From: a virus
Reading direction: 5' to 3' (one strand)
Length of the DNA: 23,724 nucleotides
IMG/VR virus record: IMGVR_UViG_3300013006_000127
Span: 1 to 23,724 of that record
Made by a program: the position numbers and the translations under genes. The notes beneath the pieces were generated by a model. The model ran no database searches and was not told the origin of the DNA. It was given only the letters and a program-made list of their open reading frames with translations. Shown here one piece after another: positions 4,215 to 20,074 of the stretch (its first letter is position 1; each line of letters starts with the position of its first letter).

Positions 4215-4664
4215 TCAGCTGATGACGCTGTCGACGGTCGCGGCCTCATGCTTGTCGGCCGAGCCGTAACGCGGATCGAAGCCGAGCATGATCGCAGAGA
4301 CCAGCGAGGCGGCCGTCGCGACAGTCAACGACAAGCGCACGAAGCGAAAGCCATTCTCGCGATCGAGATCATCCTGCCGGACGTTGATCGCGGCCTGCTT
4401 GCCGCTGTCGCTGCTCGCCTGGGTAAGCTGCGTGATGGCCAGACCGGCGACGTCCTTTGCACCGGTACCGCTGCCGTCGGACGCCTGCTGGATCTTGGCA
4501 TCGACCGTTGCGCTCGATCCAAGCACGCCGACCGAAACCAGCGCCATAACGGTAAGGAAGTCGCGCATGTCGACCCAGCCGGTCGTGACGGTGCCGGCCG
4601 ACGCGCTGACGGGGGCGATGAGGCCCACGACAGCGACGCGCTGGGAGGGATTGAGATTGGACAT
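4215..4664 (-). CDS. Putative virion protein next to the capsid gene, unknown role
   Basis: A 149-residue protein starting MSNLNPSQRVAVVGLIAPVS. Its composition (many Ala, Val, Ser and Thr; no catalytic motif) and features such as IQQASDGSGTGAKDVAG and IMLGFDPRYGSADKH resemble conserved proteins of alphaproteobacterial prophages that always follow the major capsid gene. A decoration or minor capsid function is a plausible inference from position. It has a GGAG ribosome-binding site and begins 24 bases after the capsid stop. No signal peptide is seen despite the hydrophobic start. Confidence 0.68.
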   Translation of the reverse strand: MSNLNPSQRVAVVGLIAPVSASAGTVTTGWVDMRDFLTVMALVSVGVLGSSATVDAKIQQASDGSGTGAKDVAGLAITQLTQASSDSGKQAAINVRQDDLDRENGFRFVRLSLTVATAASLVSAIMLGFDPRYGSADKHEAATVDSVIS

Positions 4665-4687
4665 CGTGTGTCTCCTTCCGGTGTCGA

Positions 4688-5980
4688 TCAGGCGCGCTCA
4701 GCGAGCGCGACGAAGTGGCTCTTGGTAGTGCTGCCGTGGGCAGGCTGCACCGGGGCGGACAACACCGGCTGGCCGCCCGCGCGAAAGATCCAGCGGAAGG
4801 CACGGATGTTGTAATCGAAGTAGAGGTGGATCGATTCCGCGAAGCTGACACCGTTCTGCTTGCGGAACGCCTCGTACCCGTTCGGATTGACAAACATCAG
4901 ATCGCCGACGTCGCCGACCGACTGCGCATGCTCGGTGAACATGATCGGGCGGCCGAGCAGGGTGCCACCTGGGCTTGCCTGATAGTTCGGGAACCAGAGC
5001 GGCTGGCCGAGCTGCGACTGCAGCTCCATGATCGCGGGCATCGTGTCCGAATTGGCGAGCCACACCGCCTGCTGCGGATTGATCATGCGGGCGAACATCT
5101 TGGCAATGTTCTGACGGACGATCGAATCGGCGGCCTGCGAGCCTTCCTCCGCGACGGTGATGAGCGCGGACGAATTGAAGAAGCCGAGGGGCTTCGAGAT
5201 GCCGTCGCCGTAGATATAGGCATCGCTGAGCTTCCAGCGGATCGCGCCGGCCGCCTTGTTGGTGAGCAGATCCGCGACCCGGGGCGCGTCCTCGAGCAGC
5301 TCCTCGGTCGCCAGCACGAGCGCATAAAGCTCGTTGAGCGGGGTCTCGCGCGGGGTGAGGGACATGCGCGAGGGCTGCATCTGCTCGGCTTCGACGCGCC
5401 AATGCGCCTGGACACCGGAGGTGCCCCACGGCGTACTCTCGTCACCGAGACCGATGACGCGGTTCGACGCCGTCGGCGACGGATCGATCAGGTTCATGAA
5501 CGGATCGTCCTCGCCATAGACGAGGTCGACGATCTGCTGCCGGAATTCGGCGGGCACGAGATAGGAGCCCGCGGCGTCGCCGGTCTCCATATGGACGTTG
5601 GTCGGTGCGGCGAGGCGATCGTCGATGCGGAAAGCCTGACCCGCCTGTGGGTTGGCAAGCCGAACGGCGCTCGCGAAGTCAGCGACACTGGCGAAGCCGC
5701 CATTGTCGAGAGCGGGTCTAGCCGTAGCCGGGACCGTTGCGGGCGGGCCGGTGGCCGGCGGCGTCAGGGCGGTGGTCCCACCCAGGGCGGCCATCTGGTC
5801 GCTGAGCTGCTGGGCCTTTGCGATCTGCTTGGTCAGCCGATCGAGTTCGGCGGCGTCCTTGACGTCCTCCGCCTCTTCGTCCGCCGTCAGTTCACGGTTC
5901 TCTGCAATCGCCTTGGCGAGGCGATCCTGCTGGCGCTTGCCCACCGCACGCGCCTCGTTTCGTAGTGCTACGAGGTTCAT
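4688..5980 (-). CDS. Major capsid protein (HK97 fold)
   Basis: A 430-residue HK97-type capsid protein. The first about 65 residues are charged and helical (RNEARAVGKRQQDRLAKAI...), typical of the delta/scaffolding domain, followed by a Pro-Ala linker (about 74-90) where the prohead protease probably cuts. The rest is the Phage_capsid fold with typical segments: GSYLVPAEFRQQIVDLVYGEDDPF, RMSLTPRETPLNELYALVLATEELLED, a GDGISKPLGF phrase, LLGRPIMFTEHAQSVGD and a C-terminal FRAGGQPVLSAPV. It has a strong ribosome-binding site (GGAGG) and a terminator-like hairpin upstream, as expected of a very highly expressed gene. It follows the protease, the usual order. Confidence 0.93.
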   Translation of the reverse strand: MNLVALRNEARAVGKRQQDRLAKAIAENRELTADEEAEDVKDAAELDRLTKQIAKAQQLSDQMAALGGTTALTPPATGPPATVPATARPALDNGGFASVADFASAVRLANPQAGQAFRIDDRLAAPTNVHMETGDAAGSYLVPAEFRQQIVDLVYGEDDPFMNLIDPSPTASNRVIGLGDESTPWGTSGVQAHWRVEAEQMQPSRMSLTPRETPLNELYALVLATEELLEDAPRVADLLTNKAAGAIRWKLSDAYIYGDGISKPLGFFNSSALITVAEEGSQAADSIVRQNIAKMFARMINPQQAVWLANSDTMPAIMELQSQLGQPLWFPNYQASPGGTLLGRPIMFTEHAQSVGDVGDLMFVNPNGYEAFRKQNGVSFAESIHLYFDYNIRAFRWIFRAGGQPVLSAPVQPAHGSTTKSHFVALAERA

Positions 5981-6013
5981 TTCTTCCTCCAGAAACGGGC
6001 GCGCGCGCCCACG

Positions 6014-6039
6014 AAAAAGGCCGCCTCGTCGGCGGCCTT
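6014..6039 (-). terminator. Terminator-like hairpin before the capsid gene
   Basis: Read leftward, AAGGCCGCC (6039-6031) pairs with GGCGGCCTT (6025-6017) around a 5-base loop, and the run of T continues to 6014. It lies in the 93-base gap between protease and capsid genes. It has the form of an intrinsic terminator but is in the middle of the morphogenesis operon. Confidence 0.7.
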
Positions 6040-6073
6040 GCTTACCCCTGCCAATATCGGCGTCGGGGAACTC

Positions 6074-6946
6074 TTAGATGACGGCTGCGGCCTCCAGCGC
6101 CGCGGCGTGACGTCGCATCAGCGCCAGGCGCGATCGGCTGGATCCGTATTTCGCGACGACGTCGCGGAGCGTCATGACGCCGTCGATCGCGCCATTCTGC
6201 GTCGCTCGCTGCGCCGAGAAGGTCTTGCCCTGACCGTGAACGGCGGGAACGTCCGCCGCGGCCATGCCACGGCCGCGGGCGATGGCGGCAACGAAGTTCT
6301 GATTACTGTCGTCGACCGACTCCTGCAGCTCGGCGCGATCCTCATCGCTCAGCGGCGCATAAGGATGGCCCGCGATCTTATCGGGCGAGGATGCGATCAG
6401 CGTCGTCTTCATACCGATCTTGTCTTCGAAGCCCGAAACGTCGGTGTGGCCGCTGCGAACGCCGACCGAGCCGACCTCGGCCGAGGGCTCGGCATAGAAG
6501 GCGCTGGCCTGTGTGCCGGCCCAATAGGCGGCTGAGAAGGCAAAGGGTTTGGCGACCGCGACGACCGGCTTGAGCTGGCGCACGTCGAATATGGCATCGC
6601 CCATCTCCTGCATCCCGAAAACGAGACCGCCTGGGCTCGCGATCGGCATGACGATCGCGCCGACCTTGGGGTCGGCGCCAAACTCACGAAGGCGGTCGGC
6701 GAAGACATCGGAATAGGTGCCGGTGCCGCTGATGATGCCCTTGGGCGCGATCATCCCTTGGATCGGCATGATGACGGTCGCGCCATCACGGATCGGGTCG
6801 GCCTGCTTGGCCTCCTGCCGCAGGCCGCCCGCGAGCATCCGCAACGCCTCGGGCAGCATCGCTTCGAGCGTGCCGCGCTTGAGCATCGCGTCGAGAAAAG
6901 CAGGATGCATCGCCCAAAGGGCGGAGGAGGCGAGTAGATCACCCAT
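6074..6946 (-). CDS. S49-family prohead protease (SppA/ClpP fold)
   Basis: A 290-residue protein with the S49 signal-peptide-peptidase fold used by many phages as head maturation protease (lambda gpC type). Visible features: the oxyanion-type glycine motif SPGG (104-107), the nucleophile region AFSAAYWAG with Ser138, GSVGV (159-163), and Lys190 in SSPDKIAGHPY. The Ser-to-Lys spacing of 52 residues equals that of Bacillus SppA (S147/K199), supporting an active Ser-Lys dyad. It would remove the scaffolding part of the capsid protein in the prohead. No signal peptide. The start overlaps the portal gene end by 8 bases. Confidence 0.9.
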   Translation of the reverse strand: MGDLLASSALWAMHPAFLDAMLKRGTLEAMLPEALRMLAGGLRQEAKQADPIRDGATVIMPIQGMIAPKGIISGTGTYSDVFADRLREFGADPKVGAIVMPIASPGGLVFGMQEMGDAIFDVRQLKPVVAVAKPFAFSAAYWAGTQASAFYAEPSAEVGSVGVRSGHTDVSGFEDKIGMKTTLIASSPDKIAGHPYAPLSDEDRAELQESVDDSNQNFVAAIARGRGMAAADVPAVHGQGKTFSAQRATQNGAIDGVMTLRDVVAKYGSSRSRLALMRRHAAALEAAAVI

Positions 6947-8228
6947 TGGTCGTGCCCGTTCTGTCCTGTGGTGAGGTTTCCCCGCCGGTGAGCGTATCCC
7001 CGGCGTGGTTCGAATTGAGCGGTGTGCGTGGGTCTTTCGACCAATCGGTATTGAGCGGCTGCATATTGAACCAGCCGGTGCGGATGTCGTCGATCGACAA
7101 GATGCTGGACGTCCGTGCGAGCACGGCGTTGCGCCATTGCGTCGCGCTGTCGCCGCGCAAGATCGAATCCAGATTGAAGCGCACCTTCAGCGAACGGCGC
7201 TGGCTGGGCGTCATCAAGCGCTTTGGGATCGCCTGCTCGATCCGTCGACACCACGGGCGCAGCGCATGGCGAACGAACGCACGCGTTTCCTGCTCGTCGT
7301 TCTTCACGTCCGCGCCATCCTCGCCGTACATCGAGCGCGGGACACGCCAGTAGCGACCCATCTCGACAGTGCGCTGCTTGATCAGCTCCGCGAGCTGCGC
7401 GTCGACATTGGTCGAGGAGACCTGTGTGTACTTAAGCCCTTTTTCGAGGACGGGCGTCTGACCGCTACGCCATTCACGAACACCCTTTTTGAGGCGCTCG
7501 ACCGTCTCTTCGGTCTTGAACTCTTGCTCAGTCGATAGAATGCCGGATAGCCGCGCATTGTTCTGAAAGAAGCTGCGTCCCTGCATTTCGAGCGCGAGAG
7601 CGAAATCCATCGACCCTTTCGCCATCCGCCAGGGGCAGAGCGGGCGCAACGTCGCATCAGAAAGCCCTGTGAACCAAAAAAGCTCGCCCGGCCCAAGCTG
7701 GCGCGCAGGTGCGTTCCACGGTTGGTAGTTCACCGCCATGCCCCGCTCGCCCCACAGCGAAACAGTCCGCAGCGGATCAAGCAGCCACATCTGCATTTCG
7801 CCATCGGACCCGATAACCGGCTCGGCGAAGGCCTCGTTTCGAAGCGCCGCGGCGAAGGCCATGCTCGACCAAAATTCGGCGCTCGTCTGAAGAGGGTTAG
7901 GACCATAAGCAATCATGTCGGCGAAACTGTCTTCGACCGGGTTGCCCGCCATATCGGTGACATCGATGTCGACACTGCCGACCGCCTCCGCGATGATGCT
8001 CACGACGAAGTTGACCGCCGAGATCTTGGCGGCCTCCTGCGGCGTCGATACGCTTGTCGGGATCAGCGAGAAAGTTAGATCGGGATCACCCCAGAAGCGA
8101 CCGTCGACGATGCTGCCATCGGTGACGTTGGTCGGTGCCGACCGCGACGCGATCTGGATGCCGCGGGCGCTATTGAAGCGGTAATGGGCATCCTCCCGAT
8201 ATTTGTCGGGCGAGGTGTAACCGCTCAT
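6939..8228 (-). CDS. Portal protein (HK97 family)
   Basis: A 429-residue HK97-type portal protein, which forms the dodecameric ring at the capsid vertex through which DNA enters and leaves. Characteristic stretches are the helix VNFVVSIIAEAVGSVDIDV near residue 70, DSFADMIAYGPNPLQTSAEFWSSM (about 98-121), LLDPLRTVSLWGERG (about 149-163), a wing region with GPGELFWFTGLSD, and a long C-terminal part with YWRVPRSMYGEDGADVKNDEQETRAFV (about 291-317). Length is standard for the family. It begins 10 bases after TerL and overlaps the protease start, as is usual for the head operon. Confidence 0.93.
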   Translation of the reverse strand: MSGYTSPDKYREDAHYRFNSARGIQIASRSAPTNVTDGSIVDGRFWGDPDLTFSLIPTSVSTPQEAAKISAVNFVVSIIAEAVGSVDIDVTDMAGNPVEDSFADMIAYGPNPLQTSAEFWSSMAFAAALRNEAFAEPVIGSDGEMQMWLLDPLRTVSLWGERGMAVNYQPWNAPARQLGPGELFWFTGLSDATLRPLCPWRMAKGSMDFALALEMQGRSFFQNNARLSGILSTEQEFKTEETVERLKKGVREWRSGQTPVLEKGLKYTQVSSTNVDAQLAELIKQRTVEMGRYWRVPRSMYGEDGADVKNDEQETRAFVRHALRPWCRRIEQAIPKRLMTPSQRRSLKVRFNLDSILRGDSATQWRNAVLARTSSILSIDDIRTGWFNMQPLNTDWSKDPRTPLNSNHAGDTLTGGETSPQDRTGTTNG

Positions 8229-11142: not shown

Positions 11143-11679
11143 TCAATTGCTTACGGGCGACGCTCGCACAATGAGCGCGCGCACGATGCGGTCGATCGCC
11201 CGCCCATAGGTTACGCGCAGAACGTCCTTCGATTGCGCCGATCGCATCGTCCGCTGGATATCGCCCCACAGCACGCGCGAGCCCTGCTGGCCCTTCCACT
11301 GGCACACGGTATGGACGAGCTTTCGCATCTGACCTCTCGGCGGCAGCAGCTCCACCCAAGCGAGCGCTTCGTTCATTCGATCGACCTCGGCATTGTCGAG
11401 TGCGCCGCGCTGCTTCGCCATGTCGTCGATCACGTCGGCGAGCAGCTTGGCGTAGGAGGCCGGCTCGGCATCGGTCTGCCGGGTTACGTCGGCATGGCCC
11501 TGCCCGAGATGCCAGGGAGCATCGCCCGCGAAAGGCGAGTGTCCCGACCGAACATGCCGATCGAGGAAGCCCACCGCTTCGATCAGCCGCTCCTCGACGA
11601 GATCTGCCGTCCACCCGACCAAGCCAGAGCCCTGCTTGTCTTCTACTCCCACCACTACCCCCAACATATTGAATTCCAT
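11143..11679 (-). CDS. DUF6362-like protein, possible late regulator
   Basis: A 178-residue protein. The segment WTADLVEERLIEAVGFL (23-39) near the start and RMNEALAWVELLPPRGQMRK (101-120) followed by a helical end (DVLRVTYGRAIDRIVRALI, 152-170) resemble the DUF6362 proteins of alphaproteobacterial prophages. Those proteins have a C-terminal helix-turn-helix reminiscent of sigma-factor region 4. A role in transcription is inference from this similarity and from the place just before the packaging and head genes. It has a purine-rich GAGAGA ribosome-binding site, and one iteron-like repeat lies just upstream (11692-11703). The closest alternative is simply an uncharacterised phage protein. Confidence 0.65.
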   Translation of the reverse strand: MEFNMLGVVVGVEDKQGSGLVGWTADLVEERLIEAVGFLDRHVRSGHSPFAGDAPWHLGQGHADVTRQTDAEPASYAKLLADVIDDMAKQRGALDNAEVDRMNEALAWVELLPPRGQMRKLVHTVCQWKGQQGSRVLWGDIQRTMRSAQSKDVLRVTYGRAIDRIVRALIVRASPVSN

Positions 11680-11691
11680 TCTCTCTCATGA

Positions 11692-11987
11692 TGACGGCGG
11701 GTTAGGTGATGGCCGCCGCGCATGCCTGCGCTCGCCCATCTGAGCGCTTCCATTTGGGTTAAACCCGCCGTTCCGCCGTCAATCCGCCGTCATCCCTGCA
11801 ATTCCAATCACTTAGCGCCGCCGCAAACCGCCGTCGCACCCGCCGTCATCGTGCCGAAAAGCCGCCGTCGCGCGCCCTTTCCGGCTCCGAGAGGAGACCT
11901 CGCCGTACCCGCCGTCATCCCCGAACCCGCCGTCAAAGCGGCTGCTACGGCGGGTTGACGGCGGGTTGAGAAACCGATCCGCCGTCG
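11692..11987. repeat. Iteron-like array, candidate replication origin
   Basis: This non-coding stretch of about 330 bases (11680-12009) holds about twelve copies of a site close to AACCCGCCGTCA. Rightward copies start at 11762, 11771, 11782, 11826, 11838, 11860, 11907, 11924 and about 11977. Inverted copies are at 11692-11703, 11946-11956 and 11956-11967. The shared core is CCGCCGTC. Several start-to-start distances are near one or more helical turns (11, 44, 12, 22). Copies 11924-11935 and 11956-11967 form an exact 12-bp inverted pair. It lies immediately after the SF3 helicase gene. P4-type helicases bind iterons at their origin, which supports an origin; a regulatory array is the alternative. 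Confidence 0.75.
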
Positions 11988-12009
11988 CGTCCGCATCAAC
12001 ATCTTGTGG

Positions 12010-13662
12010 TCAGTCTGGGAGTTCATCGCGCGCGCTCCCGCCTGAAAAAGTCGAGGGCTCCGCCCGACCAACCACCCCACCATCAGATTGGGCCGGGGCG
12101 GCGGCAGACGGCGGCGCGGCAGGCGCGGGGGCCGCGTCACGCCCGCGCTCCTCGATCGTCTTGAGCCGGATGCCCATGCGATGGCGCTTGCCCACGCGAT
12201 CCTTCTTCTCGCCGTGCTGCTTGTCGCGCAGCCACCGGCCGAGCTTGGCGGGTGTCGGGATCGGGTCGATCTCGGCTCCCTCGCAATAGACCTTGAAGCT
12301 GGCGTGCAGCTCGCCGGAAGGCGTCATGGCGGTGGGGTCGCTGGTATCGCAGCAATCCATATACCATTCGCCCATCGGGCTCGCCGAGGCGCGATATTGC
12401 AGGCTGAATTCGGTCGCCGTCGTCGAGATCGGCAGGCGCCTGGTCTCCAGCCACTTCAGCGTGCCGGCGATCATCCAGTTCAGAATGCCGCTGCCCTCGT
12501 CGTCCACGAAATGAGCGACCAGCTCCTCGAACGGCTGCGAAGCCGCACCGCCCTTGTCGAACTGATAGCTCCACGGGATCGGCACGACGCGCCGCCAGAA
12601 GCCGTCGTCGTCGCTGGGCACGGCCGGAAGCTGGTTGACTTCGACGATGAGCTTCCACCGCGCCTTATATTCGATCTCGGTCTTGTTCATCGGCCGGCAG
12701 GTGATCGTGCTGCCCGTCACCTGCTTCAGCCGCCCACCATTCCACGTCGATCGCGCCGGGGGCTCGTCGCAGATGACGAGCCGGATATCGCCCTGCAGGC
12801 GCGCCAGGTCGCTCGAATGCTCGCTGCCCGATTTTTGCGTTCCCGATTGGAGGAAGGTTTCCACCTGGGCGTGACGATAATAGTCGCCGAAGAGCTTGCT
12901 GATCGTGTCGTCGGTCAGCGATTTGCCGTCGCCGCCGCGCCCCTGGAACGTCACCCATTTCTGTTCGCTGGTGAGGGCGGTCAGGCAATAGCCGTACCAG
13001 CATTGCAGCAGCTCGCGCTGGTCGGCGGCCGGCTGCACCAGCACCATGCGCGCTTCCCAATCCGGGCACTTCGCCTCGGGATCGTAGACCACGTTGGCGA
13101 TCTGCATGATCCGATCGGTCGGGTCGTGCGGCGCAAAGCGCCGCTCCCACCCACCACCCTCGACGAAATGGAAGCGGAGCGTGCCGTTGAGGGCGTTGAA
13201 GGCCAGAGGATCGCGGTCGAAATCCTCCAGCCGGGCCGAGAGCGGCGTCTTGGCCTGGCTGAGCATACCCGCCGTCATGCTGGCATTGCCGCTCTTCACC
13301 GCATGTTTGCGGAGCGCGACGGCGCGATCCTTGACGACGCCGATCGGCAGCGCCTTCCCGAACTCCTCTTCCGGAATCCACTCGGTCTTGCCGTCGTCAT
13401 AGCGATCGACAACCGATTCCAGCGCCAGCGCCTCGGCATCGATATGGTGGGCGACATCGTGCGCCAGCCGGATCGCCATCCGCTCGCCGTCGCGTGACGA
13501 CCAGCGGCGGCCATCATAGCCCACCCAGCCCACCTCCTCGACCCACAGCAGCAGGCCCTTCGCCAGCTTGTCCAGCCGCTTGGCATTGCCCAGGTCGTTC
13601 GTGTCGAACCACGCCATCGCGCGCGGGTCCTCGACCGGCATCGGGATCATCGCGCCAGTCAT
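12010..13662 (-). CDS. D5/P4-type SF3 replicative helicase
   Basis: A 550-residue protein of the phage/plasmid primase-helicase family (P4 family, D5-N domain). The D5-type region covers about residues 100-230. The SF3 helicase follows, with Walker A GRGGDGKS (241-248), Walker B RLVICDE (294-300) and a motif C-like LIVEVNQLPAV (338-348) with Asn343. WRRVVPIPW (356-364) is the usual arginine-rich following motif. The last about 45 residues are Ala-Pro-rich. It should unwind phage DNA at the origin. No primase motif is visible here; the CHC2/Toprim primase is a separate gene. It overlaps the GapR-like gene by 4 bases. Confidence 0.92.
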   Translation of the reverse strand: MTGAMIPMPVEDPRAMAWFDTNDLGNAKRLDKLAKGLLLWVEEVGWVGYDGRRWSSRDGERMAIRLAHDVAHHIDAEALALESVVDRYDDGKTEWIPEEEFGKALPIGVVKDRAVALRKHAVKSGNASMTAGMLSQAKTPLSARLEDFDRDPLAFNALNGTLRFHFVEGGGWERRFAPHDPTDRIMQIANVVYDPEAKCPDWEARMVLVQPAADQRELLQCWYGYCLTALTSEQKWVTFQGRGGDGKSLTDDTISKLFGDYYRHAQVETFLQSGTQKSGSEHSSDLARLQGDIRLVICDEPPARSTWNGGRLKQVTGSTITCRPMNKTEIEYKARWKLIVEVNQLPAVPSDDDGFWRRVVPIPWSYQFDKGGAASQPFEELVAHFVDDEGSGILNWMIAGTLKWLETRRLPISTTATEFSLQYRASASPMGEWYMDCCDTSDPTAMTPSGELHASFKVYCEGAEIDPIPTPAKLGRWLRDKQHGEKKDRVGKRHRMGIRLKTIEERGRDAAPAPAAPPSAAAPAQSDGGVVGRAEPSTFSGGSARDELPD

Positions 13663-14096
13663 GACCCGCTCTCCCGCGCGAGCCGGGCCATCTCGGCCAG
13701 CGCCATATGCCCCTTGCGGGCCTCCGTCGCCTTGGTCAGCTTCGCCGCCGCCACCTCGGGGGGGGCGATCGTCACCTCGAACACGCCCTGATCGTTGCGC
13801 TTGAAGTCCAGCGTCCCACCCGCCGCCGCGCCGGTACCGGAAGCCTGCTCATAGGTTTCCAGTAGCGCGTCGCCGGTCATCACCTCGTCGGGCGTCAGGC
13901 GCGCGCGCTCCGAAACCTTGTTCAACGTCTTCTGATCGAAGCCGTCGTCGCGCATTTCCTTGTTCAGCTCGCGCAGATCCGCGTTGATCGCCTCCCGATC
14001 ATCTTCGAGGGCGTGGCGCCGTTTGATATAGGCTTTGAGGCGATCGGCAGCGGCCATGTCGCTGCCGGGATCTGCCCGCTTTTCCGGTTCGGGCAT
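13659..14096 (-). CDS. GapR-like (DUF2312) nucleoid protein
   Basis: A 145-residue protein whose residues about 14-66 match the GapR/DUF2312 pattern: an amphipathic helix DRLKAYIKRRHALEDDREAI, then NADLRELNKEMRDDGFDQKT with LNKVSERAR. The phrase GFDxKTLxK is typical. GapR of Caulobacter clamps overtwisted DNA ahead of replication and transcription machines and stimulates topoisomerases. The usual GapR is about 90 residues; this one has an extra C-terminal part of about 60 residues (FKRNDQGVFEVTI and an Ala-rich helix) of unknown use. The ATG at 14096 (TGATG overlap) is preferred to an earlier start because the upstream extension lies inside the neighbouring gene. The place between primase and helicase supports a replication role. 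Confidence 0.85.
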   Translation of the reverse strand: MPEPEKRADPGSDMAAADRLKAYIKRRHALEDDREAINADLRELNKEMRDDGFDQKTLNKVSERARLTPDEVMTGDALLETYEQASGTGAAAGGTLDFKRNDQGVFEVTIAPPEVAAAKLTKATEARKGHMALAEMARLARESGS

Positions 14097-14416
14097 CAGG
14101 CGTCTTTCGCCTCCAATTCGGCAAGCAGCTTCGCGAGATCGGTCCGGTCGCCAATCAGGGAAAGCGTGAGCGGGCGAATGGCGGTGAGCCACAATCCGTC
14201 GATCGCTTCAGCCGTCGTGGCGCCATCGGACAGGGCGCGCAGCGTCCCGGCCGCGACTGCCATCGCCGAGGACGCACCTGCGATGGCGCACAGGGCGCAG
14301 CCATTGGTCGTCAATTGCAGCGCGAAGTTGCGATGAATCGCGTCCTCGACATCATCCGCGCATTTCATGGCGAGATCGTTCCCGATCACAGCGCGATCGC
14401 TGAGGCCAAAGCTCAC
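14096..14416 (-). CDS. Small protein in replication operon, unknown
   Basis: A 106-residue protein starting VSFGLSDRAVIGNDLAMKCA from a GTG. The GTG is preferred because it has a GGAGG site 7 bases upstream and overlaps the previous stop by 4 bases (GTGA). The protein is helical and fairly hydrophobic in the middle (CALCAIAGASSAMAVAAGTLRAL, about 40-62), but no clear membrane helix is called because it is broken by Gly/Ser. No family recognised. Three cysteines (C19, C40, C43) are present. Its last base is shared with the GapR start, so the two are probably translated together. Confidence 0.7.
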   Translation of the reverse strand: MSFGLSDRAVIGNDLAMKCADDVEDAIHRNFALQLTTNGCALCAIAGASSAMAVAAGTLRALSDGATTAEAIDGLWLTAIRPLTLSLIGDRTDLAKLLAELEAKDA

Positions 14417-14616
14417 TTTGCGGCCTCCAAGCTGGCACGTTCGACAACCTGATCGACAGCGACCTGCAATCGCTCCTCGGCCGCCTCGACTGCTGCCAGG
14501 GCGTCCTTTTCTTCCGTCTTGGCCGCATCAAAAGCGGTGATCGCGCGATCGTATCGTGCGCGGGCATCGACGAGGGCTTTCGCCGTCGACTCCACCGTGA
14601 ATTCTTCGGTCGTCAC
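14413..14616 (-). CDS. Small coiled-coil protein
   Basis: A 67-residue, strongly helical, charged protein beginning VTTEEFTVESTAKALVDARA and continuing as a probable coiled coil (residues about 10-62, many Ala, Glu, Lys with a regular hydrophobic spacing). The GTG at 14616 is chosen because it overlaps the primase stop (GTGA) and has a strong GGGGAGG ribosome-binding site. No enzymatic motif. Likely a partner or regulator in the replication operon, but nothing shows which. Confidence 0.7.
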   Translation of the reverse strand: MTTEEFTVESTAKALVDARARYDRAITAFDAAKTEEKDALAAVEAAEERLQVAVDQVVERASLEAAK

Positions 14617-15866
14617 CCCATCCTCCCCAGATCGTTGAAATCCATGCCCATCGGCGGGCGGGCCGCGGTGACGCGGCGAACCCCGGCAGCGCGCCAGCTC
14701 TTCACGAGCAGCTCGGCTGCGATCATCGCGCGTTCGCCCGTGGTGATCGCGCGCCGCACCACAGGGCCGCCGCGCCGTTCGATCACCGGCATGCCCAACG
14801 GCTGGCCGGTGACGCGATCGATCGTGCCGAGCAGCGGTTTCATGTCCGCATCGATCAGCCCCGTCACAGGCCCATCGTGGGCGAAGGTGAGGGCTCGCGC
14901 GCCGGTCGGCGTCGGGCGGATATCGTAGAGCGGCGTCACGCCACCCTTCAGCGTGGCCCACTTGCCCGTCAGATTGTCGAGGCTGAGCATCGCCAGCCCG
15001 CAGGCATCCTCGGGTGCCCGGCAGAAATCCATGCCGCTGAAGGTCGTCTCCGTGCCCTCGCCGTTGAACAGTGCCACGTCGGGCCGATAGCGGCCCAGCA
15101 CGGCGCACCCGCCCATCGCCGAACCGCACATCTTGCGCGCCTCATAATCCTCACCGTCCCAGCGCTTGCGCTCCATCTTGCCGGTCAGGTCGGGCGACAG
15201 GAACGTCAGGTGGATGCCGATCGGGCGCCATGGCCGCTGGTCGGGATCGTCGGGGAGAGCCACCGGCCTGCGGATCAGCAGCGCGATCGTCGGCGCCTGC
15301 GGCACGCTGCCGGGCTTCTTATCGACGGCCCATGCAGAGATCGGCGCCAGGCGCGCGAAGCGGAAGTCGCGCAGCCGCTCTTCGGTCAGCCATTCGGCGG
15401 GCACCTTGCGCGCCATAAAATAGGTGCGGATCGCGTCGAAATCGCGCGTTCCGGCCTCCCACACCGTCCGCCCAAACGTGGCGGAATCGACCATCTCGCG
15501 CGATGGTGCGCGACGCCGATGCGGGGATCGCTCGCGATGCACGGGCGAGGCCTGCAGGCCATCGAGCCCGTTATCCTCCTCCAGCCGCTTCAGCGCGTCG
15601 ATAAAGGGGACGTTGTAGAAATCCTGCACGAACTTGATCGCATCGCCATGCCAGGGGCATCCCCAGCAGCGCGCATACGGCGTGTCGCCATCGGGATAGA
15701 CGGCGAAGCTGTCCGACTTTGACTGATGGAACGGGCATTGCCCCCGTGGCTTGCTGCCGTTGCCGAGCTTCACCCCGGCGCCCGCGATCAGCGCGACGAT
15801 ATCGACCCGCTCGCGCACCTTATCGACACGGGCGCGGAAGGCTTCGGAGCTGCACGAGGTGTTCAT
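14613..15866 (-). CDS. CHC2/Toprim DNA primase
   Basis: A 417-residue primase. The zinc ribbon uses C44, H47, C67 and C70 (CPFH ... CWGC), the CHC2 pattern of DnaG-type primases. A Toprim-3-like region follows, with FNGEGTETTFSG (268-278; Glu270) and LIDADMK (337-343; Asp339 and Asp341) as metal-binding motifs, and MDFNDLGR (408-415) is the usual final motif. It makes RNA primers on the lagging strand. No helicase domain is present; the SF3 helicase is a separate gene further along the operon. The ATG at 15866 is well placed and the gene is divergent from the membrane protein by 29 bases. Confidence 0.9.
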   Translation of the reverse strand: MNTSCSSEAFRARVDKVRERVDIVALIAGAGVKLGNGSKPRGQCPFHQSKSDSFAVYPDGDTPYARCWGCPWHGDAIKFVQDFYNVPFIDALKRLEEDNGLDGLQASPVHRERSPHRRRAPSREMVDSATFGRTVWEAGTRDFDAIRTYFMARKVPAEWLTEERLRDFRFARLAPISAWAVDKKPGSVPQAPTIALLIRRPVALPDDPDQRPWRPIGIHLTFLSPDLTGKMERKRWDGEDYEARKMCGSAMGGCAVLGRYRPDVALFNGEGTETTFSGMDFCRAPEDACGLAMLSLDNLTGKWATLKGGVTPLYDIRPTPTGARALTFAHDGPVTGLIDADMKPLLGTIDRVTGQPLGMPVIERRGGPVVRRAITTGERAMIAAELLVKSWRAAGVRRVTAARPPMGMDFNDLGRMG

Positions 15867-16515: not shown

Positions 16516-17157
16516 TCATGCCGTCACCTCGTCGGCAGGATAATCGTCTGGACGCTCGCGGCTTCGCCGGCAGGGCGCGATCCAGCGCAGCTGCGTAGGG
16601 AATTCGCCGTCGATCCAGACAAGCCAGGCGTAGGCCGTCGCGGTCGATCCCTCGGGAGCGAGTCGGCCCTTGTGCATCACGACGCGCTCGGTGAACTGTA
16701 GGACGAAAGTCGGCGGGTTCTTAGAGAAGAGGCGTTCATACCGCCCTTGGCCTTCGAGGAAGGCGACGCGAACGATGATCGCAAAGCCGATCCGGCTAGT
16801 GGCGGCGGCGCGCGCGATGAACTCTTCCGCCAAGCGAAAGGGCGGGTTCGTAATGGTCCAGTCGACGGTGTCGAGCGGTGCCGGAAACAGGAAATCGCGG
16901 ACGGGAAAGCCGGCGCCGTAATCGTGCACGTCGGACGCATCGACGCTCCCGAAATACTCCCGAAGGGGGCGGACCATATGGCCGCGATTCGCCGCGGGCT
17001 CGCGACACGTCATCGTGTCGAGCGCGAATTCGAAGCCGCTGTTCAGCAGCCAGACGCACAGCGCCCGCGTCGCCCAGGGCGGCGTCGGGAAATCGTCGAG
17101 GCTGTTATGGGGCTCGACACGCTGCTGCATCACGGCGCTGCTGCGGTTCTGGGTCAC
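16516..17157 (-). CDS. Phage DNA adenine methyltransferase
   Basis: A 213-residue class I SAM-dependent methyltransferase. The N-terminal DDFPTPPWATRALC (21-34) is a phrase common to phage N6-adenine methyltransferases. REPAANRGHM (52-61) is a motif I-like SAM site. TNPPF (103-107) is the catalytic motif IV (DPPY/NPPF class). A GTG at 17157 is used because it overlaps the upstream stop (GTGA) and has a GGGGG ribosome-binding site; the first ATG is 27 bases inside and has none. It could protect phage DNA from host restriction or mark it for regulation. The target sequence cannot be read from the protein. Confidence 0.85.
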   Translation of the reverse strand: MTQNRSSAVMQQRVEPHNSLDDFPTPPWATRALCVWLLNSGFEFALDTMTCREPAANRGHMVRPLREYFGSVDASDVHDYGAGFPVRDFLFPAPLDTVDWTITNPPFRLAEEFIARAAATSRIGFAIIVRVAFLEGQGRYERLFSKNPPTFVLQFTERVVMHKGRLAPEGSTATAYAWLVWIDGEFPTQLRWIAPCRRSRERPDDYPADEVTA

Positions 17158-18398
17158 AGCGCCCCCGTGGCGATACCGCCCAAGGTAAATTCAGGATCTG
17201 CGCGACGGACATCGACCTTTGAGATGATCTTCGCGCCGGCCGCGACGCGCGCGAGCTGCTCTTCGAACGTGCGCGGGCGAGCGCGCTCTGCGGCCACCTT
17301 GGCGGCTTCGGCCCGAATTTCTTCGCGATGCTCGGCCAGCACCATCGTGCGCGCGTCCTCGGCCGAGTGATCGACGCAAAGTGCCCGATAGCGGTAGATC
17401 CAACGCACCCCTTCGGGGAGCCAGTTGGCGCGACGCGACTCGAGGACAGCGTTTCGATCGCGGCCCGGCAAGATCGGCTTGGGTAATTGCTCGCCGACCG
17501 CGGCCAGCTCGCGGGCCAAATCATCGCGAATGCGGTAGGCGGAGCAAAGCCCGACCGCGAGTTCGAGCGCGGCGCGGCGCACCGGAATCCGATCGAGCAA
17601 CTTGGCCTTCAGCGCCGCGACCGTCTCGGGGGTGATGAACCGAGCGGACGCAATCTGCTTATGCCGCACACCCTTGATATCGCAGCCCGGCAGGCACTGA
17701 CCCTTGCGGGCCAGCCGCTTGATCAGTCGGTTGCGGGCCCGGCCGACGTGCGTGTTGCTGACGCCGGTTCGCGTCGACACCGTCGCGGCGCCATACCCTT
17801 CCAGCAATAGCTGCTCGACCTCCTTGCGCAGATCCGCAGAGATCTTGCGGCCCGAATAGGCTTCGCCAGCACCAGCGGCTGGAAGCGGCATCTTCCCGTT
17901 TTGCTTCAGCTCGGCGCGATACCGACGCCGCTGCTCTGCGACGCACGCCGCGCTGACGCCGAGGCGAAGCTGGATATCGACGCCCTTGATGCCGCGGCGA
18001 AGGGCGAGCCGCAGACGATCGAGCCCCTCTGGCAGCAGATGGCCGTGCTCGTCGCGCTGGGCGGGCGTGAAGCCCTTGCGCGGACAGAGCGCGATTAGGA
18101 TAGCGTTGCTGGCCGCGCTCTCACACACGCCGAATGTCGCGCCGATCCGTGCGAACGACCAACCTTCGACCTCGCGCAGTCGGATCGCCTCCTCAAGACG
18201 TGCGCCCTGCAGCTTGGGCTCGGGCGCGTTGCCGACGATCGGCGACTTGAGCTGCAGCTTAGACGCCATGACGTTGATCGCCTGCCACGACCGATCGGGC
18301 AGCGCGTCGGCAGCACCGTTCACCCCTTCGGCGGGGAACACGTCACAGAGGATGGCTATCTCCTGCGACGTCCAGGCCGGCGCCTTGCTACGCGGCAT
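17154..18398 (-). CDS. Large DNA-binding protein with five tandem HTH-like units
   Basis: A 414-residue protein starting MPRSKAPAWTSQEIAIL; a longer upstream reading frame is excluded because it overlaps the previous gene. The sequence reads as repeated helix-turn-helix-like units: a Myb/SANT-like start (8-50, WTSQEIAILCDVFP), then units at about 68-104 (IGATFGVCESAASN), 125-162 (IQLRLGVSAACVAE), 188-229 (VSTRTGVSNTHVGR) and 255-298 (AALELAVGLCSAYR). Each holds a hydrophobic helix followed by a turn and recognition-type helix. A basic C-terminal region follows. The gene overlaps its neighbours at both ends. I do not recognise a named family; a phage transcription or origin-binding factor is the best inference. 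Confidence 0.75.
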   Translation of the reverse strand: MPRSKAPAWTSQEIAILCDVFPAEGVNGAADALPDRSWQAINVMASKLQLKSPIVGNAPEPKLQGARLEEAIRLREVEGWSFARIGATFGVCESAASNAILIALCPRKGFTPAQRDEHGHLLPEGLDRLRLALRRGIKGVDIQLRLGVSAACVAEQRRRYRAELKQNGKMPLPAAGAGEAYSGRKISADLRKEVEQLLLEGYGAATVSTRTGVSNTHVGRARNRLIKRLARKGQCLPGCDIKGVRHKQIASARFITPETVAALKAKLLDRIPVRRAALELAVGLCSAYRIRDDLARELAAVGEQLPKPILPGRDRNAVLESRRANWLPEGVRWIYRYRALCVDHSAEDARTMVLAEHREEIRAEAAKVAAERARPRTFEEQLARVAAGAKIISKVDVRRADPEFTLGGIATGAL

Positions 18399-19407
18399 TG
18401 TTCGGAAATCCGTCGTGCTGGACGCCGTCAAGCAGCCGGCCCGCAGCTTTTTTCCTGAGGCGAGCGGCGTAGTGCACGCGCTCGCCGTGAAAGCCGGTGC
18501 CGCCTGCCAGATTGAGCCACTGTCCCGGCCGCCGCTGCTGGTCAGAGCACCGCCGCCAATCGGGGTCATCGCGCTCGCGATCGTATTCGAGAGAATGCGC
18601 GCCCCACTGCTTGAAGAAGAACGGAATGCCGGCCCCCGCACACTGATCACGAAGCGAACGAACCCAATCCGGGTGCATCGGACGCGCGCCCGCGCCGCTC
18701 TCGCCGCCGACGATCACCCAATCGATGGCCAGCTCGTCTCCGATCCCGGTGAAATCGCACTTGCGGCAGCATTCCTGCATCCCGGTCGAAGGATCGGTGA
18801 TCGGAGCGTAACCGTCCTCGTCGAGCCAGTTCTCGCAATCCTGCCAGAGCAGGTGCGCCCCAAAATCGACAGGGCCGAGAAGCGGTTCAATCGACAGGAA
18901 GGTGCGACCCACGATGCCGGCCTGCTTCAGCACCTTAAGCTTCGGAATATCGCGGTCTGCCTCGTCCTGATTGGCGATTGTCGCGCCGAGCAACACGTTC
19001 GGCGGCATCACCTTCATCTCGCCATCGGCCCAGATCATGCGCTCGACGTTGCCGATGCGCTTGGTCAGCAGCAGCCAGTCCAGGTTCGGTGTCCGGTTGA
19101 TCAGCTCGAAGAGATCGGACCGCCAATCCGGGTTCACCTCGTTATCGAACACGTCGGCAAGGCTGGCGCAGAATACGCGATAGCGCCGCCCTTCGGCCGC
19201 TGCTTTCCGATCCCACGCGATCGGGAGCTTCCAGTTCGCTTCGCTCGTGCGGATGCGCGGCTCACCCGCGCCCCACCGGACGCGCCCGTACCGCTGATCC
19301 ATCATCGCCCAAGCGTAGCAATGCTCGCATGCCGGGCTGACCTTCGTGCAGCCGATCCACGGATTGAACGTGTGGTCTGCCCACTCGATCGCGGTGTTTT
19401 CAGCCAT
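18388..19407 (-). CDS. DUF5131 (Gp37/Gp68-like) radical-SAM-like protein
   Basis: A 339-residue protein that starts MAENTAIEWADHTFNPWIGCTK and has the DUF5131 signature. The three cysteines C20, C27 and C30 (C-x6-C-x2-C, followed by Tyr) have the form of a radical SAM iron-sulfur site. The following core, FCASLADVFDNEV (79-91), LDWLLLTKR (109-117), LLGATIANQDEAD (139-151), FLSIEPLLGPVDF (170-182), VIVGGESGAGARP (231-243) and FFFKQWG (263-269), is typical of the family. Between core motifs there is an insert with extra cysteines (C191, C213, C214, C217), perhaps another metal site. The substrate is unknown. Start at 19407 is set by the family N-terminus and the 8-base overlap with the previous gene. 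Confidence 0.85.
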   Translation of the reverse strand: MAENTAIEWADHTFNPWIGCTKVSPACEHCYAWAMMDQRYGRVRWGAGEPRIRTSEANWKLPIAWDRKAAAEGRRYRVFCASLADVFDNEVNPDWRSDLFELINRTPNLDWLLLTKRIGNVERMIWADGEMKVMPPNVLLGATIANQDEADRDIPKLKVLKQAGIVGRTFLSIEPLLGPVDFGAHLLWQDCENWLDEDGYAPITDPSTGMQECCRKCDFTGIGDELAIDWVIVGGESGAGARPMHPDWVRSLRDQCAGAGIPFFFKQWGAHSLEYDRERDDPDWRRCSDQQRRPGQWLNLAGGTGFHGERVHYAARLRKKAAGRLLDGVQHDGFPNNAA

Positions 19408-20074
19408 CGCGGCCGCCCCGATCGATGTTGCCGCGAATGACGCGGAAGGTGAGCGCGACGACGAAGGGGTTATCTTGCCAGCGCGCGCCGGGATTGGTGT
19501 GGAGTCCATCCCAAAGCCAGTTGAACGCGTGCGCGCCGCCGCCGATGATGCCGGTGACGATGGCGCGACGGTCCTCGGCCGATACCTCTCCGAACTTCGA
19601 ACGCTGGCCGTCCTCGACCGCAGAGCAAACGCCCTCGGCCCAAGCGTCCTCCTCGCTGATCTCCTGCAGTCGCTCGACCTTTACGCCCTCGACGTGGAGC
19701 GTCAGGCGAGAAAACTCGCGTGGCATATGGATAGACGGCCAGAACTTTGTGCCCGCATCGGTTTCGTCGGTCGCACGATAGATCGGGCGGCCGTTGGTAT
19801 GCGCCGACCGACGCGCATCTTCGATTGTCCAGACCCCGGTGCCCGAGTGCGACCATGCCTCCCGGACGTAGAGCCGATCGCCAACGGCATAGCGCGGCTC
19901 CGCGACCATCTCTCTCGTCGCGCGATACCCTCCCTCGAAGGGCTCGCCGCGATCGATGAAATCTTGGATCGATAGCCCCGGCCTGACCTTCGCCAACCGG
20001 CGCGTCTGGGTTTTCCGCCCCGCCAGCAGCGCGCGCACCATCGGCGCCGAGAAGATGATCGGACGCTCAGTCAC
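19400..20074 (-). CDS. ASCH-like phage protein
   Basis: A 224-residue protein beginning VTERPIIFSAPMVRALLAG. The start IIFSAPMVRALLAGRKTQTRR (6-26) is the well-known N-terminus of a conserved phage family with an ASCH/PUA-like fold (motif G-x-K-x-x-T-R-R). The fold is thought to bind RNA or modified nucleotides. A later phrase FSRLTLHVEGVKVERLQEISEEDAWAEG is typical of the same family. The GTG at 20074 is used because it has a GGGGAG ribosome-binding site and overlaps the previous gene by 8 bases. The biochemical role is not known. Confidence 0.82.
   Translation of the reverse strand: MTERPIIFSAPMVRALLAGRKTQTRRLAKVRPGLSIQDFIDRGEPFEGGYRATREMVAEPRYAVGDRLYVREAWSHSGTGVWTIEDARRSAHTNGRPIYRATDETDAGTKFWPSIHMPREFSRLTLHVEGVKVERLQEISEEDAWAEGVCSAVEDGQRSKFGEVSAEDRRAIVTGIIGGGAHAFNWLWDGLHTNPGARWQDNPFVVALTFRVIRGNIDRGGRDG

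What the first reader, a model, noticed from the sequence alone, without database searches (positions are those of the whole stretch)
11692..11987. Iteron-like array of about twelve AACCCGCCGTCA-type sites next to the SF3 helicase
The only long non-coding stretch of the replication region carries nine direct and three inverted copies, partly phased by helical turns, with an exact 12-bp inverted pair. One more exact ACCCGCCGTCA occurs at 13267-13277 inside the helicase gene. This is how helicase-bound phage origins look, and the sequence is not one I recognise. The five-HTH protein or the helicase itself could bind it.
Basis: partly seen in the sequence, partly recalled or inferred. Interest (0 to 1): 0.65.

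Follow-up and report, generated by a model that had tools for sequence, protein, structure and literature searches.

The report
Phage origin read by its helicase
The repeats are most likely the landing sites of the phage's own replication helicase, an origin placed directly behind the helicase gene; the same layout recurs in about a hundred related phages and prophages, each with its own repeat sequence, and the repeat changes together with the DNA-reading end of the helicase.

Summary
Window 11692-11987 carries 12 CCGCCGT cores (9 plus, 3 minus) where about 1 is expected. A DNA-only search of viral contigs found the same array, with matching order, orientation and most spacings, in another record. 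There it again lies directly behind a 72%-identical helicase gene, although that phage has a different terminase. Across 135 non-redundant helicase relatives, the strongest repeat cluster of the whole locus lies within -150..+350 bp of the helicase stop in 101 (chance about 5%). The repeat differs by lineage but keeps one register (AACCCGCCG, AACCCTCCG, AACTGTCCG, AACTGTCTG, GACTGTTCG). P4's annotated crr, directly behind its alpha gene, has ACTGTTCACC in the same register. Repeat sequence follows the helicase's C-terminal winged helix better than its ATPase or the downstream gene; terminase and five-HTH protein are uncoupled from it. The best reading is an iteron replication origin recognised by the helicase itself. 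That layout is known from P4, SaPI/PICI islands, SCCmec Cch2 and phage Sfi21. It is a new member of a known kind, with a large natural data set hinting at a specificity code. Binding and origin function are inferred, not shown.

The parts
11692..11987 (.). Iteron array: 12 sites of the type AACCCGCCGTCA (cores at 11765, 11773, 11784, 11828, 11840, 11862, 11909, 11927, 11979 on +; 11694, 11947, 11958 on -); proposed helicase-bound origin
   Evidence: same order, orientation and most spacings in L049; same place in relatives
12010..13662 (-). D5-type SF3 helicase, 550 aa, proposed initiator
   Evidence: Pfam D5_N E 8.5e-19 and DUF5906 E 3.2e-9; model pLDDT 89 with best matches AsfvPrimPol and MPXV E5
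12145..12510 (-). C-terminal winged helix of the helicase (residues 385-506); recognition helix 471-480, wing strands 485-487 and 493-496
   Evidence: model pLDDT 88; RFX5 match probability 1.00, E 0.006; Pfam Pox_D5 in 44 of 54 and RFX in 21 of 54 relatives; covaries with repeat sequence
14613..15866 (-). Primase with DnaG-type zinc ribbon, 417 aa, likely partner
   Evidence: PF01807 E 4e-17
11663..11692 (.). AT-rich stretch next to the outermost iteron, candidate melting site; overlaps the start of p178
   Evidence: GC 0.30 here; mean GC dips to about 0.48 near +320 bp in 42 relatives
12001..12013 (-). CCACAAGATGTTG element at the edge of the array, function unknown
   Evidence: ACAAGAT[AG] is 0.548 per kb around arrays against 0.031 per kb elsewhere in the same loci
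11143..11679 (-). p178, next gene downstream, unknown function; rival binder
   Evidence: phrog_6836 E 1e-10; family present behind 37 of 63 array-bearing helicases

Best explanation
The array is the phage's replication origin, or the helicase-loading part of it. The D5-type SF3 helicase encoded immediately upstream binds the 8-10 bp iterons through its C-terminal winged helix. Sites about one or two helical turns apart, on both strands, gather helicase subunits, probably into one or two hexamers. The ATPase then opens nearby DNA, perhaps the AT-rich stretch at 11663-11692, and the neighbouring DnaG-like primase primes synthesis. Shown here: the array, its conserved place behind the helicase gene, its uniqueness, and its covariation with the winged helix. 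Inferred: binding, loading, melting and origin function.
For: Same array behind a 72% identical helicase, found by DNA pattern alone. Strongest cluster of the locus within -150..+350 of the helicase stop in 101 of 135 non-redundant relatives, 73 of 82 when the score is at least 10, chance about 5%. P4 crr, annotated as required in cis for replication, directly behind alpha with repeats in the same register; Sfi21 annotated origin directly behind its putative primase; the scan finds all of these known regions. Motif follows the winged helix given the ATPase (partial r 0.36, p 0.001) but not the reverse (-0.08); top columns 483, 487, 488 and 493 lie after the recognition helix and in the wing. 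One cluster in each of six related virus records. Literature: P4 alpha binds origin repeats by a winged helix (PMC4234260); SaPI Rep and Cch2 bind iterons directly behind their genes with their C-terminal domains (PMC7581432); PICI rep-ori supports plasmid replication (PMC6092414).
Against: No binding or replication experiment. Motif classes were assigned by eye and the relatives are not independent, so permutation p-values are optimistic. Several columns in the ATPase part also score highly. p178 keeps a weaker but significant correlation (0.20). L071 and L150 break the simple rule: both have LRDK[HQ]H, but L071 has AACCCTCCG and L150 a mixed array. About a quarter of the relatives, mostly remote ones, do not show their top cluster at this place.
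Confidence: 0.85

Rival explanations
1. The array is a set of operators for the downstream gene p178, bound by p178 or another regulator, controlling the switch to downstream genes.
For: The array lies just before p178. p178 similarity keeps a small correlation with the motif after allowing for the winged helix (0.20, p 0.002). A double role, origin plus autoregulation, is not excluded.
Against: p178-family genes are missing from 26 of 63 array-bearing loci. The winged helix explains more (0.44). No sigma-70-like promoter was found at the array (other promoter types are not covered). In P4 the equivalent array is annotated as a cis replication region.
Confidence: 0.08
2. The array is a packaging site (pac or cos) bound by the small terminase subunit.
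For: It lies about 1.1 kb from the terminase small-subunit gene in this window.
Against: L049 keeps the array with an unrelated terminase. L064, L074, L066 and L134 have terminases 61-69% identical but different helicases and different repeats.
Confidence: 0.02
3. The five-HTH protein (17154-18650) is the binder and the helicase is only recruited.
For: It is a multi-HTH protein in the same gene cluster, with only weak HTH-type family hits.
Against: No relative at any other helicase locus and none in named phages, although the array is conserved.
Confidence: 0.03
4. The pattern is a by-product of a coding or RNA constraint: a short overlapping ORF or an RNA structure.
For: Short ORFs overlap the array in the window and in L049 with partly similar peptides; the RNA fold is modestly more stable than shuffles (z -2.9).
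Against: The window-L049 alignment has a 1-base gap inside the ORF, and spacings of 8, 11 and 20 bp do not keep a frame. Inverted repeats alone can explain the fold. No credible Rfam match. Relatives vary in spacing and keep sites on both strands.
Confidence: 0.02

Closest known systems
Phage P4 alpha protein with its type-1 repeats, ori and crr
   Same: Directed repeats on both strands directly behind the helicase gene (crr 4291-4590 behind alpha 4636-6969); same motif register, ACTGTTCACC against AACTGTCCG and AACCCGCCG; winged-helix C-terminus that binds the repeats (PMC4234260)
   Different: P4 fuses primase and helicase and has a second, distant repeat cluster at ori; here primase is separate and only one cluster is seen
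SaPI and PICI rep-ori replicons
   Same: Iteron origin immediately 3' of the initiator helicase gene; iteron sequences differ between elements (PMC6092414; PMC7581432)
   Different: PICI origins are described as two iteron sets flanking an AT-rich part; here the AT-rich part lies at one end. This is a phage record with terminase, portal and protease-like genes, not a satellite island
SCCmec Cch2 helicase and its putative origin
   Same: D5_N-type helicase whose isolated C-terminal domain binds direct repeats directly downstream of its gene (PMC7581432)
   Different: Only three AAGTG iterons there; 12 longer sites here
Streptococcus phage Sfi21 origin
   Same: Annotated 302-bp non-coding origin directly behind a putative primase/helicase gene (NC_000872); its repeats are the top cluster in the same scan
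   Different: AT-rich phage with GTAACTAA-type repeats around a long AT tract

Membership tests
Iteron origin directly 3' of an SF3/D5 helicase gene (SaPI/PICI/SCC rep-ori type) | Repeat array immediately downstream of the helicase gene | tested here: met
   Array about 20 bp behind the stop; 101 of 135 relatives likewise
Iteron origin directly 3' of an SF3/D5 helicase gene (SaPI/PICI/SCC rep-ori type) | Helicase with C-terminal DNA-binding domain | tested here: met
   Winged-helix model, RFX5 structural match, Pox_D5 in 44 of 54 relatives; domain call, not a binding test
Iteron origin directly 3' of an SF3/D5 helicase gene (SaPI/PICI/SCC rep-ori type) | Helicase binds the iterons specifically | not testable with these tools
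   Only covariation
Iteron origin directly 3' of an SF3/D5 helicase gene (SaPI/PICI/SCC rep-ori type) | Region plus helicase supports autonomous replication | not testable with these tools
   Needs a plasmid test
PICI-type origin | Two iteron sets flanking an AT-rich part | tested here: inconclusive
   GC dip lies at the far end of the array in 42 relatives and also holds the next gene's start
Phage P4 alpha system | Primase and helicase in one protein | tested here: not met
   Separate DnaG-type primase gene 14613-15866
Phage P4 alpha system | Two separated repeat clusters, ori and crr | tested here: not met
   One cluster in the window and in six related records, which may be fragments
Phage P4 alpha system | Repeats of the type-1 register | tested here: met
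   ACTGTTCACC aligns with AACTGTCCG/GACTGTTCG/AACCCGCCG
Plasmid iteron Rep proteins without helicase activity | Initiator lacks its own helicase | tested here: not met
   The adjacent gene is a helicase with conserved Walker A GxGGDGKS

The most novel reading that the evidence does not exclude
The wing and recognition helix of D5-type helicases read the iterons by a simple, transferable code. Examples: a K-D pair at 487-488 goes with C-G at motif positions 8-9, its loss with C-C or T-G, and H or F at 483 with G at position 6. Origins of many uncultivated phages and prophages could then be located and matched to their initiator from sequence alone.
Probability: 0.45. Interest if true: 0.66.

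Novelty: new member of a known kind. Interest (0 to 1): 0.52.

Why it matters
Phage origins in uncultivated hosts are rarely known. The layout found here places one directly behind most D5-type helicases examined, mainly in alphaproteobacterial phages, with remoter and less tested cases in acidobacterial and archaeal genomes. [quoted passage not shown] the core of that layout, iterons directly behind the initiator gene, now appears common in temperate phages. The diverging repeat with a covarying DNA-reading domain is a natural experiment on how initiators and origins change specificity together. L229 against L205, L190 and L191, with helicases 71-73% identical, shows the pattern: K487 with TGTCCG against L487 with TGTCTG.

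Tried and rejected
Scanning viral and genome contigs with the single helicase sequence found nothing; an alignment query was needed. DNA similarity to named phages: none. Protein searches of named phages with the five-HTH protein and with p178: none. Packaging-site reading rejected because array and terminase are uncoupled. Coding reading rejected through a frame-breaking gap and spacings that do not keep a frame. RNA-family reading rejected. The helicase-internal site 13267-13277 was considered as a second origin element and judged incidental. Curtobacterium phage SpecialK, a remote helicase relative, had its top cluster elsewhere. 1KA8, the P4 origin-binding domain, appears only weakly by sequence (E 0.58) and not among the listed structural matches.

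Full report
WHAT IS THERE. The array is real and as described: nine direct and three inverted CCGCCGT cores in 11694-11985, where an order-2 Markov model of the region gives 1.1 on average and never more than 5 in 2000 trials. It starts about 20 bp behind the stop of a 550-aa helicase gene (12010-13662, minus strand; D5_N and DUF5906) and ends at the start of a 178-aa gene of unknown function (11143-11679). Upstream in the same direction are a GapR-like gene and a primase with a DnaG-type zinc ribbon. The window is a 23.7-kb virus record.

AN UNBIASED REPLICATE. A scan of viral contigs with a DNA pattern only, two CCCGCCGTCA within 32 bp, returned 54 stretches. The densest cluster, in L049, again lay between a helicase (72% identity) and a p178 homologue (42%). 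Most spacings and orientations match from end to end: 11, 20 and 18 bp in the helicase-proximal group, the 8/11 triple, and 71 bp to the last inverted copy; the middle of the array differs. The window's terminase found no match in L049, which has another large terminase, so the array travels with the replication genes and not the packaging genes.

A GENERAL LAYOUT. Helicase relatives were collected from viral contigs and from bacterial and archaeal genomes. In each locus the strongest 8-mer cluster in any 350 bp was sought with no use of gene position. In 101 of 135 non-redundant loci it lies between -150 and +350 of the helicase stop, where about 5% is expected; of clusters scoring 10 or more, 73 of 82 do. 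The repeat differs between lineages. As controls, the same scan found the annotated ori and crr of phage P4 and the annotated ori of phage Sfi21.

ONE REGISTER. The repeats line up: AACCCGCCG (window type), AACCCTCCG, AACTGTCCG, AACTGTCTG, GACTGTTCG, AACCGTTCC, and P4's ACTGTTCACC. In 30 arrays examined there is a median of 10.5 sites, on both strands, with same-strand neighbours mostly 8-12 bp apart. Remote relatives have arrays of other sequence (for example AACCCTCGC, CCTCCCAA, AACTGGTG).

WHO READS IT. The helicase C-terminus (385-506) is modelled as a winged helix (pLDDT 88). Its best structural match is the RFX5 DNA-binding domain (probability 1.00, E 0.006); 44 of 54 relatives match Pfam Pox_D5 and 21 match RFX. 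Motif differences follow winged-helix differences after allowing for the ATPase (partial r 0.36, p 0.001), and not the reverse (-0.08). In the subset with p178, the winged helix given p178 is 0.44 and p178 given the winged helix is 0.20, both significant. p178 is missing from 26 of 63 array loci. The five-HTH protein has no relative at any other helicase locus. Specific columns stand out: 483 with motif position 6, 487 with positions 7-8, and 488 with position 9, although some ATPase columns also score highly. On a tree of the ATPase alone the motif string changes 20 times and position 9 changes 4 times; all seven arrays with C there lack D or N at 488, and 42 of 45 with G have it. L229 and L205/L190/L191 (71-73% identical helicases) differ as K487/TGTCCG and L487/TGTCTG. 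These are correlations in related sequences with motif classes assigned by eye, so they point to the helicase without proving it. Exceptions exist: L071, and L150 with a mixed array.

HOW IT LIKELY WORKS. By analogy with P4 alpha (PMC4234260), SaPI Rep and SCCmec Cch2 (PMC7581432) and PICI replicons (PMC6092414), the helicase binds its iterons through the winged helix, assembles as hexamers and opens DNA; the primase then starts synthesis. A dip in GC to about 0.48 some 320 bp behind the helicase stop in 42 relatives (11663-11692 here) is a candidate melting site, but it also holds the next gene's start.

RIVALS. An operator for p178 is the only rival with some support, and a double role is possible. 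A packaging site is ruled out in practice by the uncoupling from the terminase: L064, L066, L074 and L134 have terminases 61-69% identical to the window's but other helicases and other repeats. Coding or RNA constraint does not explain frame-breaking spacing and the varied arrays of relatives.

STANDING. It works like the known helicase-bound origins and meets their positional, repeat and domain criteria; binding and replication were not testable. It is not a P4 system proper (one cluster, separate primase), and whether it matches the PICI origin in full is open (the AT-rich part lies at one end). What is added is a new repeat type, the breadth of the layout in phages, and the covariation.

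Noticed in passing
12001-12013 (minus strand); edges of arrays in 15 of 63 relatives: A second element, ACAAGATRTTG or CCACAAGATGTGG, lies at one or both edges of the array: 0.548 per kb around arrays against 0.031 per kb elsewhere. In L224 it is a perfect palindrome (CCCACAAGATGTGGG). Possible host-factor site, terminator or start-codon context.
   Followed up: partly
L150, around 7490-7990: Mixed array holding AACCCGCC-, AACCCTCC- and AACTGTCC-type sites, perhaps an intermediate in a change of specificity.
   Followed up: partly
17154-18650: The 498-aa multi-HTH protein has no relative at the other helicase loci or in named phages, and its listed start overlaps the DUF5131 gene 18388-19509; the true start is probably internal.
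   Followed up: partly
13659-14192: A GapR-like protein (PF10073, E 4e-12) is encoded directly before the helicase; GapR-like genes were also found in 28 of 173 helicase loci.
   Followed up: no
L049 7343-9448: The closest helicase relative carries a different large terminase (701 aa), a clear case of a replication module joined to another packaging module.
   Followed up: no
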